Shown here: piece by piece, positions 2,091-33,851 of the stretch
Layout of the letters: every line of letters starts with the position of its first letter
Numbering within the stretch: the first letter of the stretch is position 1
Source of the DNA: Argopecten irradians
Taxonomy: Eukaryota > Mollusca > Bivalvia > Pectinida > Pectinidae
Direction: 5' to 3'
DNA length: 64,000 nucleotides
NCBI RefSeq assembly: GCF_041381155.1
Contig: NC_091145.1
Coordinates: 39,323,882-39,387,881, forward strand
Position numbers and translations under genes: made by a program
The notes under the pieces: generated by a model
Seen by the model: the letters and a program-made list of their open reading frames with translations, nothing else
Database searches by the model: none
What the model was told of the DNA's origin: nothing

Positions 2091-3841
2091 TCTCTCTGTT
2101 TACAGACCCAGACGACTTCAGCCTCAGTATCATTACCCTCCGACCAGTTTGAGTTACCTGGTATATATGATGTTTATCTCTCTGTTGACAGAGCCAGACG
2201 ACTTCAGCCTCAGTATCATTACCCTCCGACCAGTTTGAGTTACCTGGTATATATGATGTTTATCTCTCTGTTTACAGACCCAGACGACTTAAGCCTCAGT
2301 ATCGTTACCCTCCGACCAGTTTGAGTTACCTGGTATATATGATGTTTATCTCTCTGTTTACAGACCCAGACGACTTCAGCCTCAGTATCGTTACCCTCCA
2401 ACCAGTTTGAGTTACCTGGTATATATATATATGTTTATCTCTCTGTTGACAGAGCCAGACGACTTCAGCCTCAGTATCATTACCCTCCGACCAGTTTGAG
2501 TTACCTGGTATATATGATGTTTATCTCTCTGTTTACAGACCCAGACGACTTAAGCCTCAGTATCATTACCCTCCGACCAGTTTGAGTTACCTGGTATATA
2601 TGATGTTTATCTCTCTGTTTACAGACCCAGACGACTTAAGCCTCAGTATCGTTACCCTCCGACCAGTTTGAGTTACCTGGTATAGATGATGTTTATCTCT
2701 CTGTTTACAGACCCAGACGACTTCAGCCTCAGTATCGTTACCCTCCAACCAGTTTGAGTTACCTGGTATATATATATATGTTTATCTCTCTGTTGACAGA
2801 GCCAGACGACTTCAGCCTCAGTATCATTACCCTCCGACCAGTTTGAGTTACCTGGTATATATGATGTTTATCTCTCTGTTTACAGACCCAGACGACTTAA
2901 GCCTCAGTATCGTTACCCTCCGACCAGTTTGAGTTACCTGGTATATATGATGTTTATCTCTCTGTTTACAGACCCAGACGACTTCAGCCTCAGTATCATT
3001 ACCCTCCGACCAGTTTGAGTTACCTGGTATATATATATGTTTATCTCTCTGTTTACAGAGCCAGACGACCTCAGCCTCAGTATCGTTACCCTCCGACCAG
3101 TTTGAGTTACCTGGTATATATGATGTTTATCTCTCTGTTTACAGACCCAGACGACTTCAGCCTCAGTATCGTTACCCTCCGACCAGTTTGAGTTACCTGG
3201 TATATATGATGTTTATCTCTCTGTTTACAGACCCAGACGACTTCAGCCTCAGTATCGTTACCCTCCGACCAGTTTGAGTTACCTGGTATATATGATGTTT
3301 ATCTCTCTGTTTACAGACCCAGACGACCTCAGCCTCAGTATGGTTACCCTCCAACCAGTTTGAGTTACCTGGTATATATGATGTTTATCTCTCTGTTTAC
3401 AGACCCAGACGACTTCAGCCTCAGTATCGTTACCCTCCGACCAGTTTGAGTTACCTGGTATATATATGATGTTTATCTCTCTGTTTACAGACCCAGACGA
3501 CTTCAGCCTCAGTATCTTTACCCTCCGACCAGTTTGAGTTACCTGGTATATATATATGTTTATCTCTCTGTTTACAGAGCCAGACGACCTCAGCCTCAGT
3601 ATCGTTACCCTCCGACCAGTTTGAGTTACCTGGTATATATGATGTTTATCTCTCTGTTTACAGACCCAGACGACTTCAGCCTCAGTATCATTACCCTCCG
3701 ACCAGTTTGAGTTACCTGGTATATATGATGTTTATCTCTCTGTTGACAGACCCAGACGACTTCAGCCTCAGTATCGTTACCCTCCGAACCAGTTTGAGTT
3801 ACCTGGGTATATATAATATGTTTATCTCTCTGTTTACAGAG
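2091..3841 (+). repeat. 86-bp tandem array, each unit carrying an exon-like block with acceptor and donor
   Basis: About 20 units of 86 bp. Each unit reads TTATCTCTCTGTTTACAG (pyrimidine tract plus AG), a 55-nt block, then CTG|GTATAT. The block ends in phase 0 and in one frame encodes PRRLQPQY(H/R)YPPTSLSYL, which could align with the N-terminal part of PHYH before the EQRxFYEENGF region. Units differ by a few substitutions (CGTT/CATT, ACCCAG/AGCCAG) and by TA-run length. About 31 nt separate one exon-like block from the next, too short for a normal intron, so probably at most one copy is used. Confidence 0.9.
2106..2160 (+). CDS. Candidate N-terminal PHYH exon (first of ~20 copies)
   Basis: This is the leftmost exon-like block of the 86-bp array: 55 nt between TTTACAG and GTATAT. 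Read as one leftover base plus 18 codons, it gives a stretch ending YPPTSLSYL at phase 0. PHYH proteins have a loosely conserved stretch (FQYTLDNNVLT in human) just before the first helix, and position in the gene and orientation fit. Conservation there is weak, so the assignment is inferred from location and splice signals. Which copy, if any, is spliced cannot be told. Confidence 0.35.
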
Positions 3842-31800: not shown

Positions 31801-33851
31801 GCTTAAGTTTGGTGTTCGGCGTTTTATTTATAAAAAAGGGTGGCTTAAGTTTGGTGTTTGGCGTTTTGTGCTTAAGTTTGGTGTTTGGCGTTTTATTTAT
31901 CAAAATAGGGTCGCTAAAGTTTGGTGTTTGGCGTTTTATTTATCAAAATAGGATGGCTTAAGTTTGGTGTTTGGCGTTTTGTGCTTAAGTTTGGTGTTTG
32001 GCATTTTGTTTCTCAAAATAGGGTGGCTTAAGTTTGGTGTTTGGCGTTTTATATATCAAAATAGTGTAGCTAAAGTTTGTTGTTTGCCGTTTTATTTATC
32101 AAAAAAAGGATGGCTAAAGTTTGTTGTTTGGCATTTTGTTTATAAAAATAGGGTGGCTTAAGTTTGGTGTTTGGCGTTTTTCTGTGTTTTAGCGCAAAAC
32201 TTTTTTTCTGAACGAAAGCTAAAATTCTGAAGTTCTTCTTGTTTCATCGGTCCTTTTGTCGGATAGATCCAACAACAATGACAAACAGATATGATTTGAT
32301 TTGAAGCATATCGATACTTAAGCAAACCCTTTGACATATTTATCTTCAATAGAAGTGATTAATACATTTCATTACATGTGTTTATATGTGTTTTCCTAAA
32401 AGAAAGAAACATAATGCACAGGTAGTGTTTAACGATGCAGTTAGCCTATGGTCAAGGTAAATGTATGTTTATATGGGAGTTGTCGGACCGTTGTCATTTA
32501 AATGGTAATGTTACAGTGTATCCAAGTTGTTTAGGAAAAACCAGGTATAGACTTAAGCGCATAAGCCACAGTACCATAGCTGTATGTTTCGAGGTTTTCA
32601 GTCATAATCAGAAACCATAGTACTACATATGCACATCCAAATACATGTACACTATACTTAAACAAAGACTTATGAATCAAGGGGTTCAATCGCACATACT
32701 TCATTCGTACAGAAAAACAGAATCAATGACTTTAGGGCGTGTATCAAATGTACAAAGGACCGAAAGTTTCAAACCATCGAGATCTATAATTACACGATGT
32801 TAAGAATGGCAAATAAGGTATGTAGCTACGAGATCATGAATACGGAAATCCAGCTACATGTATCCATATCCAGATGGGTGAAGGGAGTATAGAGGGTTCT
32901 TTTGAGGATCGCGTGGTGACTTACATATGTACAATTGAGGTTCTATTGGTGACTTACCATTGATGTTCTATGGGTGACTTACCATTGAGGTTCTATGGGT
33001 GACTTACAGTTGAGGTTCTATGGGTGAATTACCATTGAGGTTCTATGGGTGACTTACCATTGAGGTTCTATTGGTGACTTACCATTGAGGTTCTATGGGT
33101 GACTTACCATTGAGGTTCTATGGGTTACTTACCTTTGAGGTTCTATTATATAATGGTGACTTACCATTGAGGTTGTATTGCTGACTTACCATTGAAGTTC
33201 TATTGGTGACTTACCATTGAGGTTCTATTTGGTTGGCATTGAGTTTATTGGTGATTACCATTGAGGTTCTATTGGTGACTTACCATTGAGGTTCTATTGG
33301 TGACTTACCATTGAGGTTCTATTGGTGACTTACCATTTAGGTTATATGACTACCAGGTTACTATGCTGACTTACCATTTAGGTTCTATTGGGCTTACCAT
33401 TGAGGTTCTATTGGTGACTTACCATTGAGGTTCTATTGGTGGCTTACCATTGAGATTCTATTGGTGACTTCCATTGAGGTTCTTAGTTATATAACTTACC
33501 GTTGAGATCTTTGTTGACTGCGGGATGAAGAACAGATAAAAGATCCACGAATTCCTGGTAGACGTTTCCTACGATCTGTAGCTCCATTGTGTCAGTTTTC
33601 TTCTTGTCATGCTGGTGTTCGGAGAGCACCTGGTTAAAGTACGTGGACGCACAGCCGAGTAGTGAGCGGTTTAGGTAGAGTTTCTTATCCTCCACAACCA
33701 GCACAAGATCCGTATAGGAGTCTTGTTTTAAGAAAGGTAGCGAGGATTGTTTCCCTCCTCCCTTCTTACTTTCCGCAGGAACAGAATGCTTAGAGGCCTG
33801 TGTTGTCCTTCTATCATTGCGACGGTCCTGCAAGGGTATAGTTCCTGACAT
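28344..33851 (-). CDS. BTB/POZ-domain protein with C-terminal coiled coil
   Basis: Two exons join in phase (AAC-G|AA-AGG) to give 299 residues. Residues 1-43 form a basic, Ser/Lys-rich leader. From about 44, DSYTDLVLVVEDKKLYLNRS and LLGCASTYFNQVLSE are the start of a BTB fold. FVDLLSVLHPAVNKDL and ALRLLPLLEEYKMDVMKDKC complete it near 145. A helical middle follows, then a Glu/Lys-rich coiled coil (LEKLSKVEAELEQEKQENEA) near 235-260 and a basic tail (RARRYKTFGNK). BTB domains dimerise and often recruit cullin-3 ligases. No MATH, Kelch or zinc-finger domain is present, so the partner cannot be predicted. The start ATG at 33851 is the first in frame. Both exons are intact. Confidence 0.88.
28892..29756. 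other. BTB intron, unique part
   Basis: No exon, repeat or mobile element recognised. It contains short ATGTACATGTACATGTA runs near 28950. Confidence 0.5.
29757..30012 (-). repeat. Dispersed repeat in two tandem 130-bp copies
   Basis: CATACTGATAATACGCAAAC, CAGTCGTCCCTCTTTC and GGTGCCGTGCCCGGGA recur at an exact 130-bp offset (29766 and 29896). From memory this resembles a short repeat common in bivalve genomes. I cannot assign a class. Confidence 0.7.
30357..30459. repeat. (GA)n microsatellite
   Basis: About 50 nearly perfect GA dinucleotides in the BTB intron, directly before the 43-bp array. Confidence 0.98.
30536..30905 (+). repeat. 43-bp satellite, block 1
   Basis: About nine units of GTGGCTTAAGTTTGGTGTTT followed by GGCGTTTTATTTATCAAAATA. 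Variant order (GGCGGC, then GTTCGGCG, then TTATAAAAAAGG, then the short GTGCTTAAG form, then GGCATTTTGTTTCTC) matches that in block 2. Confidence 0.93.
30906..31335. other. Non-repetitive spacer between the two 43-bp blocks
   Basis: It starts with CAGAGTTCGAATCCGGGCC, a phrase also found just before block 1 at 30511. The rest is unique. The shared phrase contains a tRNA B-box-like GTTCGAATCC. Confidence 0.6.
31336..32180 (+). repeat. 43-bp satellite, block 2
   Basis: About 20 units of the same family as block 1. The part from about 31750 to 32025 repeats the variant sequence of block 1 almost exactly, so one block was copied from the other. Confidence 0.93.
32181..32933. other. BTB intron, unique part
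   Basis: No exon or known repeat recognised between the 43-bp and 25-bp arrays. Confidence 0.5.
32934..33490 (-). repeat. 25-bp array copying the BTB 5' splice site
   Basis: About 22 units. On the gene strand each reads ACCTCAATG|GTAAGTCACC followed by AATAGA. The authentic junction of BTB exon 1 is ATCTCAACG|GTAAGTTAT, matching the unit at 13 of 15 positions around the splice site. The array starts within 30 bp of that junction and runs into the intron. Some units are ragged around 33140-33360. Confidence 0.9.
33500..33851 (-). CDS. BTB gene exon 1 (start, leader and most of the BTB core)
   Basis: 352 nt, 117 codons plus one base, from ATG at 33851 to the donor CAACG|GTAAGT. It begins MSGTIPLQDRRNDRRTTQ. 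The BTB core starts near residue 44 and runs to the splice site. Confidence 0.9.

What the first reader, a model, noticed from the sequence alone, without database searches (positions are those of the whole stretch)
2091..33500. Several satellites are amplified copies of the host gene's own splice junctions
Two PHYH arrays (71 and 39 bp) contain the exact acceptor plus the first exon codons of the exon they abut. A third (86 bp) contains a whole exon-like block with acceptor and donor. The BTB array (25 bp) contains the donor of exon 1. So two unrelated genes on opposite strands show the same thing: junction sequence expanded 20-40 fold towards the intron side. Known tandem-duplication models of intron creation involve one duplication across AGGT. 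Arrays of this scale at four junctions suggest a local process that starts at exon edges, for example slippage or repair linked to transcription. Whether the copies compete for the spliceosome is open.
Basis: partly seen in the sequence, partly recalled or inferred. Interest (0 to 1): 0.85.

Follow-up and report, generated by a model that had tools for sequence, protein, structure and literature searches.

The report
Repeat arrays copied from splice junctions
In this scallop genome some exon edges have been copied into long tandem repeats inside the neighbouring intron, a feature already described in amphioxus as "mirage" minisatellites, and the repeats seem to be ordinary tandem duplications that happened to span a splice site and are tolerated there.

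Summary
The core observation is right for three of the four arrays. The 71-bp and 39-bp PHYH arrays contain the acceptor plus 31 and 18 bp of the exon they run into. The 25-bp array contains the donor of BTB exon 1. Each scores above all 200 shuffles of its unit. The 86-bp array abuts no exon, and its link to PHYH is not established.

The genome is 846 Mb. Two joined myosin exons are 208/208 identical to scallop myosin structures. A survey of myosin, aldehyde-dehydrogenase and chaperonin exons found 4 more junction-spanning arrays in 117 exon hits. So the phenomenon recurs across the genome.

The proposed process that starts at exon edges is not needed. Array density alone predicts 1.65-1.80 such cases in 234 hit edges (P(>=4) = 0.09-0.11). 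A 2-3-fold excess cannot be excluded.

This is a known kind: "mirages" in amphioxus Adh, globin, troponin C and PGBD5 genes. My ten literature searches listed none named in a mollusc.

Most likely mechanism: a tandem duplication happens to span a junction, expands as a minisatellite, and is tolerated because exon definition selects the exon-proximal splice site.

The parts
4921..6528 (+). 71-bp array (about 22 copies) holding the PHYH exon acceptor and 31 bp of exon; degenerate older copies upstream to about 4370
   Evidence: TRF; junction match; per-copy divergence; genome matches reported only here
6497..6581 (+). PHYH exon ([28 protein letters not shown]), open frame, acceptor at 6496|6497, donor GTAAGG at 6582
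   Evidence: tblastn; PDB match 2a1x
10615..12269 (+). 39-bp array (about 42 copies) holding the acceptor and 18 bp of the next PHYH exon
   Evidence: TRF; junction match; 34 copies of TTTGTTTTCAGGCT
12252..12396 (+). PHYH exon (AISCHY...), broken in all three frames as assembled
9180..9361 (+). PHYH exon, intact, no array at either junction
9787..9936 (+). PHYH exon, intact, no array of period 15-200 at either junction (a TA run begins at 9955, 19 bases past the donor)
13090..13143 (+). probable last PHYH coding exon ([17 protein letters not shown] stop)
   Evidence: translation; acceptor context
2091..3840 (+). 86-bp array, exon-like 55-bp block between AG and GT; not shown to be a junction array
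   Evidence: TRF; edges; peptide test; genome matches reported only here
6804..9016 (+). 31-bp intronic array without junction sequence (internal control)
32930..33519 (-). 25-bp array (about 22 copies) holding the donor of BTB exon 1
   Evidence: TRF; junction match; 13 copies of AATGGTAAGT
33500..33851 (-). BTB gene exon 1 (coding part), donor GTAAGT at 33499
   Evidence: Pfam PF00651 E 3.4e-10
28344..28891 (-). BTB gene exon 2, no array at its acceptor

Best explanation
These are mirage-type minisatellites. (1, shown) Each array unit is a copy of one exon-intron junction of its host gene. (2, inferred) It began as one tandem duplication whose two breakpoints happened to fall on either side of a splice site, through slippage or end joining at short direct repeats. 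(3, inferred) It then grew by unequal exchange or slippage like the other minisatellites of this genome. (4, inferred) Such arrays survive only when they grow into the intron with the exon-proximal junction intact, because exon definition pairs the splice site nearest the exon with the one at its other end, so the distal copies stay intronic. (5) Junctions need not be special starting points: dense array birth throughout the genome roughly accounts for their number.
For: Three units match their own junction and score no other of 18 above the 95% point of their shuffles. The 71-bp unit's reported genome matches all lie in this array. Independent cases: L042 (aldehyde dehydrogenase acceptor, 31 bp x 8), L044 (aldehyde dehydrogenase donor, 44 bp x 12), L038 (myosin acceptor, 60 bp x about 25), L081 (myosin acceptor, 56-57 bp). 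Number close to that expected from array density: 4 against 1.65-1.80. Near ends of other arrays are spread over the first 400 bp from exons. Direct repeats at founding breakpoints: TTGTT in L042 (upstream CTC[TTGTT]TGTTACTCC, exon GCTA[TTGTT]CCC) and TAT at the 39-bp array. Exact duplicates of the functional splice site exist at 4 of 7 arrays: 10 for the 71-bp array, 7 for L042, 7 for L044, 6 for L081, the functional one counted; there only position can tell them apart. Amphioxus precedent: mirages at both 5' and 3' boundaries; RT-PCR reported there suggests they do not disturb regular splicing (passages of PMC3087553; PMC3902484).
Against: The point estimate is 2-3-fold above expectation, so some preference for junctions remains possible. 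No RNA evidence: which copy is spliced is unknown here. At 3 of 7 arrays (39-bp as assembled, 25-bp, L038) the functional site is not identical to any copy, so sequence rather than position could decide there. Breakpoint direct repeats were made out at only 2 of 7 junction arrays, by eye and without a chance control. The survey covers three gene families; hit edges are not always true exon edges, so 234 is an upper bound for junctions and the expectation may be lower; one of the 30 control rows (L081 731-956) continues the L081 junction array, which also lowers it slightly.
Confidence: 0.75

Rival explanations
1. A process linked to splicing or transcription (R-loop, replication conflict, repair) starts tandem duplications at exon edges.
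For: Window: 3 of 18 modelled junctions against 0.30-0.67 expected, P 0.004-0.03. Survey: 4 against 1.65-1.80. Both excesses point the same way.
Against: Survey P is 0.09-0.11. The window was picked for being striking and is 55% array against 7.9% in the survey loci. 9 of the 12 non-intergenic array units tested in the window hold no junction.
Confidence: 0.2
2. The arrays are sequencing or assembly artefacts.
For: Strong insertion excess in the 71-bp array (63.5 against 2.6 deletions per kb) and a frame-broken exon next to the 39-bp array; the bay scallop draft used PacBio gap filling (passages of PMC7090048; that this assembly descends from it is not known).
Against: Other junction arrays are clean: L042 has no substitutions or indels in its copies, L038 has substitution variants and no insertions. 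The 25-bp array has more deletions than insertions. Higher-order period of 347 in the 86-bp array. Similar arrays were reported in amphioxus with RT-PCR and trace data. Base errors affect copies, not the existence of arrays.
Confidence: 0.05
3. The repeated splice sites are kept by selection because they regulate splicing (decoys, enhancers or intron length control).
For: Splice sites are kept in many copies (34 copies of the 39-bp acceptor core). Splice positions match slightly better than the whole unit in two arrays: 86-bp CAG 1.000 against 0.980, 25-bp GT 0.935 against 0.920.
Against: They match slightly worse in the other two: 71-bp CAG 0.984 against 0.987, 39-bp CAG 0.960 against 0.976. 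No consistent sign; homogenisation is enough to explain the copies.
Confidence: 0.05

Closest known systems
Mirage minisatellites of amphioxus (Adh3, globins BflGb6 and BflGb9, troponin C, PGBD5; PMC3087553, PMC3902484)
   Same: Tandem arrays whose unit spans an exon-intron boundary, at either 5' or 3' boundary; unit sizes reported 10-72 bp (Adh3) and 150-160 bp (globins); authentic junction kept at the exon side; many copies keep AG or GT (abstract and passages; one passage).
   Different: Here in a scallop, a mollusc; up to about 42 copies against 3-6 units reported for BflGb6. Splicing and length polymorphism were tested there and not here. The original 2002 paper is not held; its content is known here only through the citing papers.
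Internal tandem repeats at exon-intron boundaries of human genes in segmental duplications (PMC2812944)
   Same: Minisatellite expansion at exon-intron boundaries that alters introns (passages read).
   Different: Short arrays (on average 30-bp units repeated 4 times), variable between paralogs and linked to alternative or new introns; here arrays of 0.25-1.7 kb extend existing introns.
Intron gain by tandem duplication across AGGT (Rogers model; potato RdRp case PMC4974935, seen as search listing with start of abstract)
   Same: A tandem duplication that carries splice signals.
   Different: There one duplication makes a new intron; here an existing junction is multiplied and no new intron is shown.
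Introners (PMC9860276, seen as search listing with start of abstract)
   Same: Repeated sequences bearing splice sites.
   Different: Introners insert copies into many genes; the 71- and 86-bp units were found at one locus each.

Membership tests
Mirage minisatellites | tandem array whose unit spans an exon-intron boundary | tested here: met
   3 of 18 modelled junctions in the window, 4 of 117 surveyed exon hits
Mirage minisatellites | either boundary type, 5' and 3' | tested here: met
   acceptors: 71 bp, 39 bp, L038, L042, L081; donors: 25 bp, L044
Mirage minisatellites | array lies in the intron and the authentic junction stays intact beside the exon | tested here: met
   exception: the exon beside the 39-bp array is frame-broken as assembled
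Mirage minisatellites | interior copies homogenised, boundary copies not | tested here: inconclusive
   71-bp array: distal copies degenerate and the exon copy differs by one base; L042 is uniform throughout; L038 shows little gradient
Mirage minisatellites | normal mRNA splicing in spite of duplicated splice sites | not testable with these tools
   no RNA data
Mirage minisatellites | length polymorphism and somatic instability | not testable with these tools
   one assembly only
Intron gain by AGGT duplication | duplicated segment is exonic and creates a new intron | tested here: not met
   the seven junction units hold 11-43 bp of an existing intron besides their exonic part (units as); whether the introns themselves are old was not tested
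Introners | copies at many unrelated loci | tested here: not met
   20 of 20 reported matches of the 86-bp unit and 25 of 25 of the 71-bp unit lie in or beside their own arrays; the search scores best candidates only; the other units were not searched

The most novel reading that the evidence does not exclude
In scallops, junction-spanning arrays are a major genome feature: several thousand introns (4 of 117 exon hits, scaled to about 190,000 exons) carry repeated copies of a splice site. They arise 2-3 times more often at exon edges than elsewhere because of a transcription- or splicing-linked duplication process, and thereby drive intron growth.
Probability: 0.2. Interest if true: 0.75.

Novelty: new member of a known kind. 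Interest (0 to 1): 0.5.

Why it matters
The amphioxus mirages look like a cephalochordate feature in the papers found. Finding the same in a mollusc, in several unrelated genes, suggests that any genome with dense minisatellite birth may hold them. They are natural experiments on splice-site choice: at 4 of 7 junction arrays 6-10 sequence-identical acceptors or donors lie in tandem, so intrinsic strength is held constant and only position differs. That makes exon definition directly testable with RNA reads. They also show how introns can lengthen from an exon edge, and they are a hazard for gene annotation and for polishing of assemblies.

Tried and rejected
Rejected: a fourth PHYH junction in the 86-bp array, for lack of an adjoining exon. 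Rejected: dispersed mobile origin of the 71- and 86-bp units. Led nowhere: the PHYH 5' half (human residues about 1-133) was not found in the window or in the two 10-kb stretches just upstream; in the genome search query residues 1-103 and 248-308 of 308 were unmatched, the latter including the frame-broken exon and the last exon, so that search is not sensitive. The C4 PhyH hit is only 40% identical over 40 residues and was not used as a PHYH paralog. A 29-base stretch of a 145-bp window repeat had no exact match in viral contigs. L030 looked like a junction array but begins beyond the donor and has 2.8 copies. L022, L057, L077, L079 and L084 were weak or two-copy rows and were not counted; L022 is a 21-bp two-copy repeat over a donor. 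The 118-bp two-copy duplication in L058 lies inside an exon hit and was not counted. Rows dropped before the survey count: 9 of 59 chaperonin rows (6 on contig C451, 3 of a second C4 copy) as duplicates; 29 of the remaining 146 hits lacked 300 bp of fetched flank. Some counted hits carry in-frame stops, because hits can run past exon ends. Three further exon hits fetched later (L099-L101) had no arrays, making 4 of 120. Literature: ten searches used; five papers opened for passages; a bivalve haemoglobin gene paper listed was not opened.
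Full report
What was checked. The window is 64 kb of a chromosome-scale animal assembly of 845.8 Mb (C12:39323882-39387881). Two exons of a muscle myosin from the same assembly, joined by me, are 208/208 identical to scallop myosin heavy chain structures (1dfk, 1b7t, 1kk7, 1qvi). That these entries are from the bay scallop Argopecten irradians, and 2ec6 and 2os8, which score lower, from another scallop, is recalled and not printed by the call.

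Genes. On the + strand the window holds the 3' half of a phytanoyl-CoA hydroxylase gene (PHYH; best PDB match 2a1x, E 9.4e-83; Pfam PhyH in two exons). Its modelled coding exons are 6497-6581, 9180-9361, 9787-9936, 12252-12396 and 13090-13143. On the - strand lies a BTB-domain gene with exons 33851-33500 and 28891-28344 (BTB E 3.4e-10), and a third membrane-protein-like gene between about 46705 and 38270. I recall that one as TMEM45-like; Pfam gave no significant match, and its 7 junctions are by-eye models. Splice sites come from sequence and homology only; no RNA was available.

The junction arrays. I compared 16 array units (12 in introns or upstream of the first PHYH exon found, 4 intergenic) with 18 modelled junctions, each against 200 mononucleotide shuffles. 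Three stand out and each hits only its own junction: 71 bp (score 113), 39 bp (54) and 25 bp (37). No shuffle of these units scored above 28. Their exonic parts are 31, 18 and about 8 bp. The 71-bp unit has 25 reported matches in the genome, all in window 4371-6528, so it is a local product. The 86-bp unit is also confined to its place (20 of 20 reported matches), but no exon was found to adjoin it, and its peptide resemblance to PHYH residues 30-45 is reached by 183 of 2000 shuffles.

Sequence quality. The 71-bp array has 63.5 insertions per kb against 2.6 deletions and 10.6 substitutions; the 39-bp array 25.4 against 16.7; the 25-bp array 12.8 against 32.9; the 50-bp array at 38869 has 1.1 and 1.1. 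The exon after the 39-bp array is broken in all three frames, while the exons at 6497, 9180 and 9787 are open. For the 71-bp array and that exon this suggests unpolished long-read errors rather than gene decay, but reads would be needed to decide, and the 25-bp array does not share the pattern.

Genome survey. Exon hits were taken from searches of the own genome with myosin head (82 hits), aldehyde dehydrogenase (14) and chaperonin (59, of which 50 were kept). Of these 146 hits, 117 had at least 300 bp of fetched flank on both sides. Arrays of at least 3 copies spanning an exon edge were found in 4 of 117: L042, an aldehyde-dehydrogenase acceptor (31 bp, eight perfect copies, 20 bp of exon); L044, an aldehyde-dehydrogenase donor (44 bp, 12 copies); L038, a myosin acceptor (60 bp, about 25 copies, 19 bp of exon); and L081, a myosin acceptor (56-57 bp, 13 bp of exon). 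Three further hits had none.

Is the junction special? In the surveyed non-coding sequence (161.5 kb, 70 independent loci) there are 30 other array rows of the same definition; one of them continues the L081 junction array, and several are cut by the ends of the stretches. If arrays are born anywhere, 1.65-1.80 should span one of 234 hit edges; 4 do (P 0.09-0.11). In the window the expectation is 0.30-0.67 for 18 junctions against 3 seen (P 0.004-0.03), but the window was selected by eye and is 55% array against 7.9% of the survey loci. Near ends of other arrays are also scattered over the first 400 bp of introns. So a process that starts at exon edges is neither needed nor excluded; the point estimate is a 2-3-fold excess.

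Mechanism. At two of seven arrays short direct repeats can be read at the founding breakpoints: TTGTT in L042 and TAT at the 39-bp array (by eye, no chance control). This fits slippage or end joining between short repeats, followed by minisatellite expansion. That arrays lie on the intron side because copies there can be spliced out while copies in the exon break the gene is inference. Exact copies of the functional splice site exist at four arrays: 10 for the 71-bp array, 7 for L042, 7 for L044 and 6 for L081, the functional one included; at the 39-bp (as assembled), 25-bp and L038 arrays the functional site has no exact copy. At the four, sequence strength cannot decide between copies. The simplest account, from general knowledge of splicing, is exon definition: the splice site nearest the exon is chosen. 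Splice positions are kept slightly better than the whole unit in two window arrays and slightly worse in two, so no clear selection on the copies is seen.

What is known. [quoted passage not shown] A later paper adds PGBD5 and troponin C (one passage read). The original 2002 paper is not held. A human study found minisatellites at exon-intron boundaries of duplicated genes (passages read). Ten searches of the open library listed no mirage named outside amphioxus; the one without a taxon word returned only the amphioxus globin paper. Subscription papers were not searched.

Scale, inferred by hand. With 26,777 genes and 7.11 exons per gene reported for a bay scallop draft, 4 of 117 would mean some 6,500 junction arrays, with a wide Poisson interval (roughly 2,000-17,000). 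Three gene families are a thin basis for this figure.

Verdict. A real, recurrent feature of this genome; a new member, in a mollusc, of a known kind. On re-checking, the facts mended (exact copies at 4 of 7 arrays, mixed conservation of splice positions, 11-43 bp of intron per unit) did not require a change of odds.

Noticed in passing
window 1-6500 and 20 kb upstream (L007, L008): The 5' half of the PHYH gene (human residues about 1-133) was not found here or by a genome search of limited sensitivity; it is missing, too diverged or lost in assembly.
   Followed up: partly
L058 4103-4345 (G000:C1): A 118-bp, 99% identical, two-copy tandem duplication inside a myosin exon hit; 118 is not a multiple of three. 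Possibly a fresh duplication or an assembly fault.
   Followed up: no
window 1-64000: TRF arrays (period 15-200, at least 3 copies) cover 35,125 of 64,000 bases, against 7.9% in the surveyed loci near exons.
   Followed up: partly
window 12252-12396: PHYH exon next to the 39-bp array is broken in all frames while the three exons before it are open; looks like unpolished insertions next to an array.
   Followed up: partly
window 10615-12269: The 39-bp unit is 13 codons and stop-free in the exon's frame ([13 protein letters not shown]), so use of a distal acceptor could insert an in-frame peptide repeat.
   Followed up: no
window 9998-10519 and 43626-45200: Units of 275 bp (x2) and 255 bp (x5) look by eye like tRNA-derived short interspersed elements, the second arranged in tandem.
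   Followed up: no
window 35990-36963: Mariner-type transposase in two open frames (HTH_48 and Transposase_1 matches).
   Followed up: no
G000:C4:11541074-11569547 and contig C451: Chaperonin exon hits repeat on C4 and on small contig C451, suggesting a tandem gene copy plus a leftover haplotype contig.
   Followed up: no
L022 1662-1702 (G000:C2): A 21-bp two-copy repeat spans the donor of a myosin exon hit; it could be an early stage of a junction array.
   Followed up: no
L081 (G000:C4), oriented array: One copy in the 56-57-bp junction array lacks 26 bases, a likely slippage deletion.
   Followed up: no
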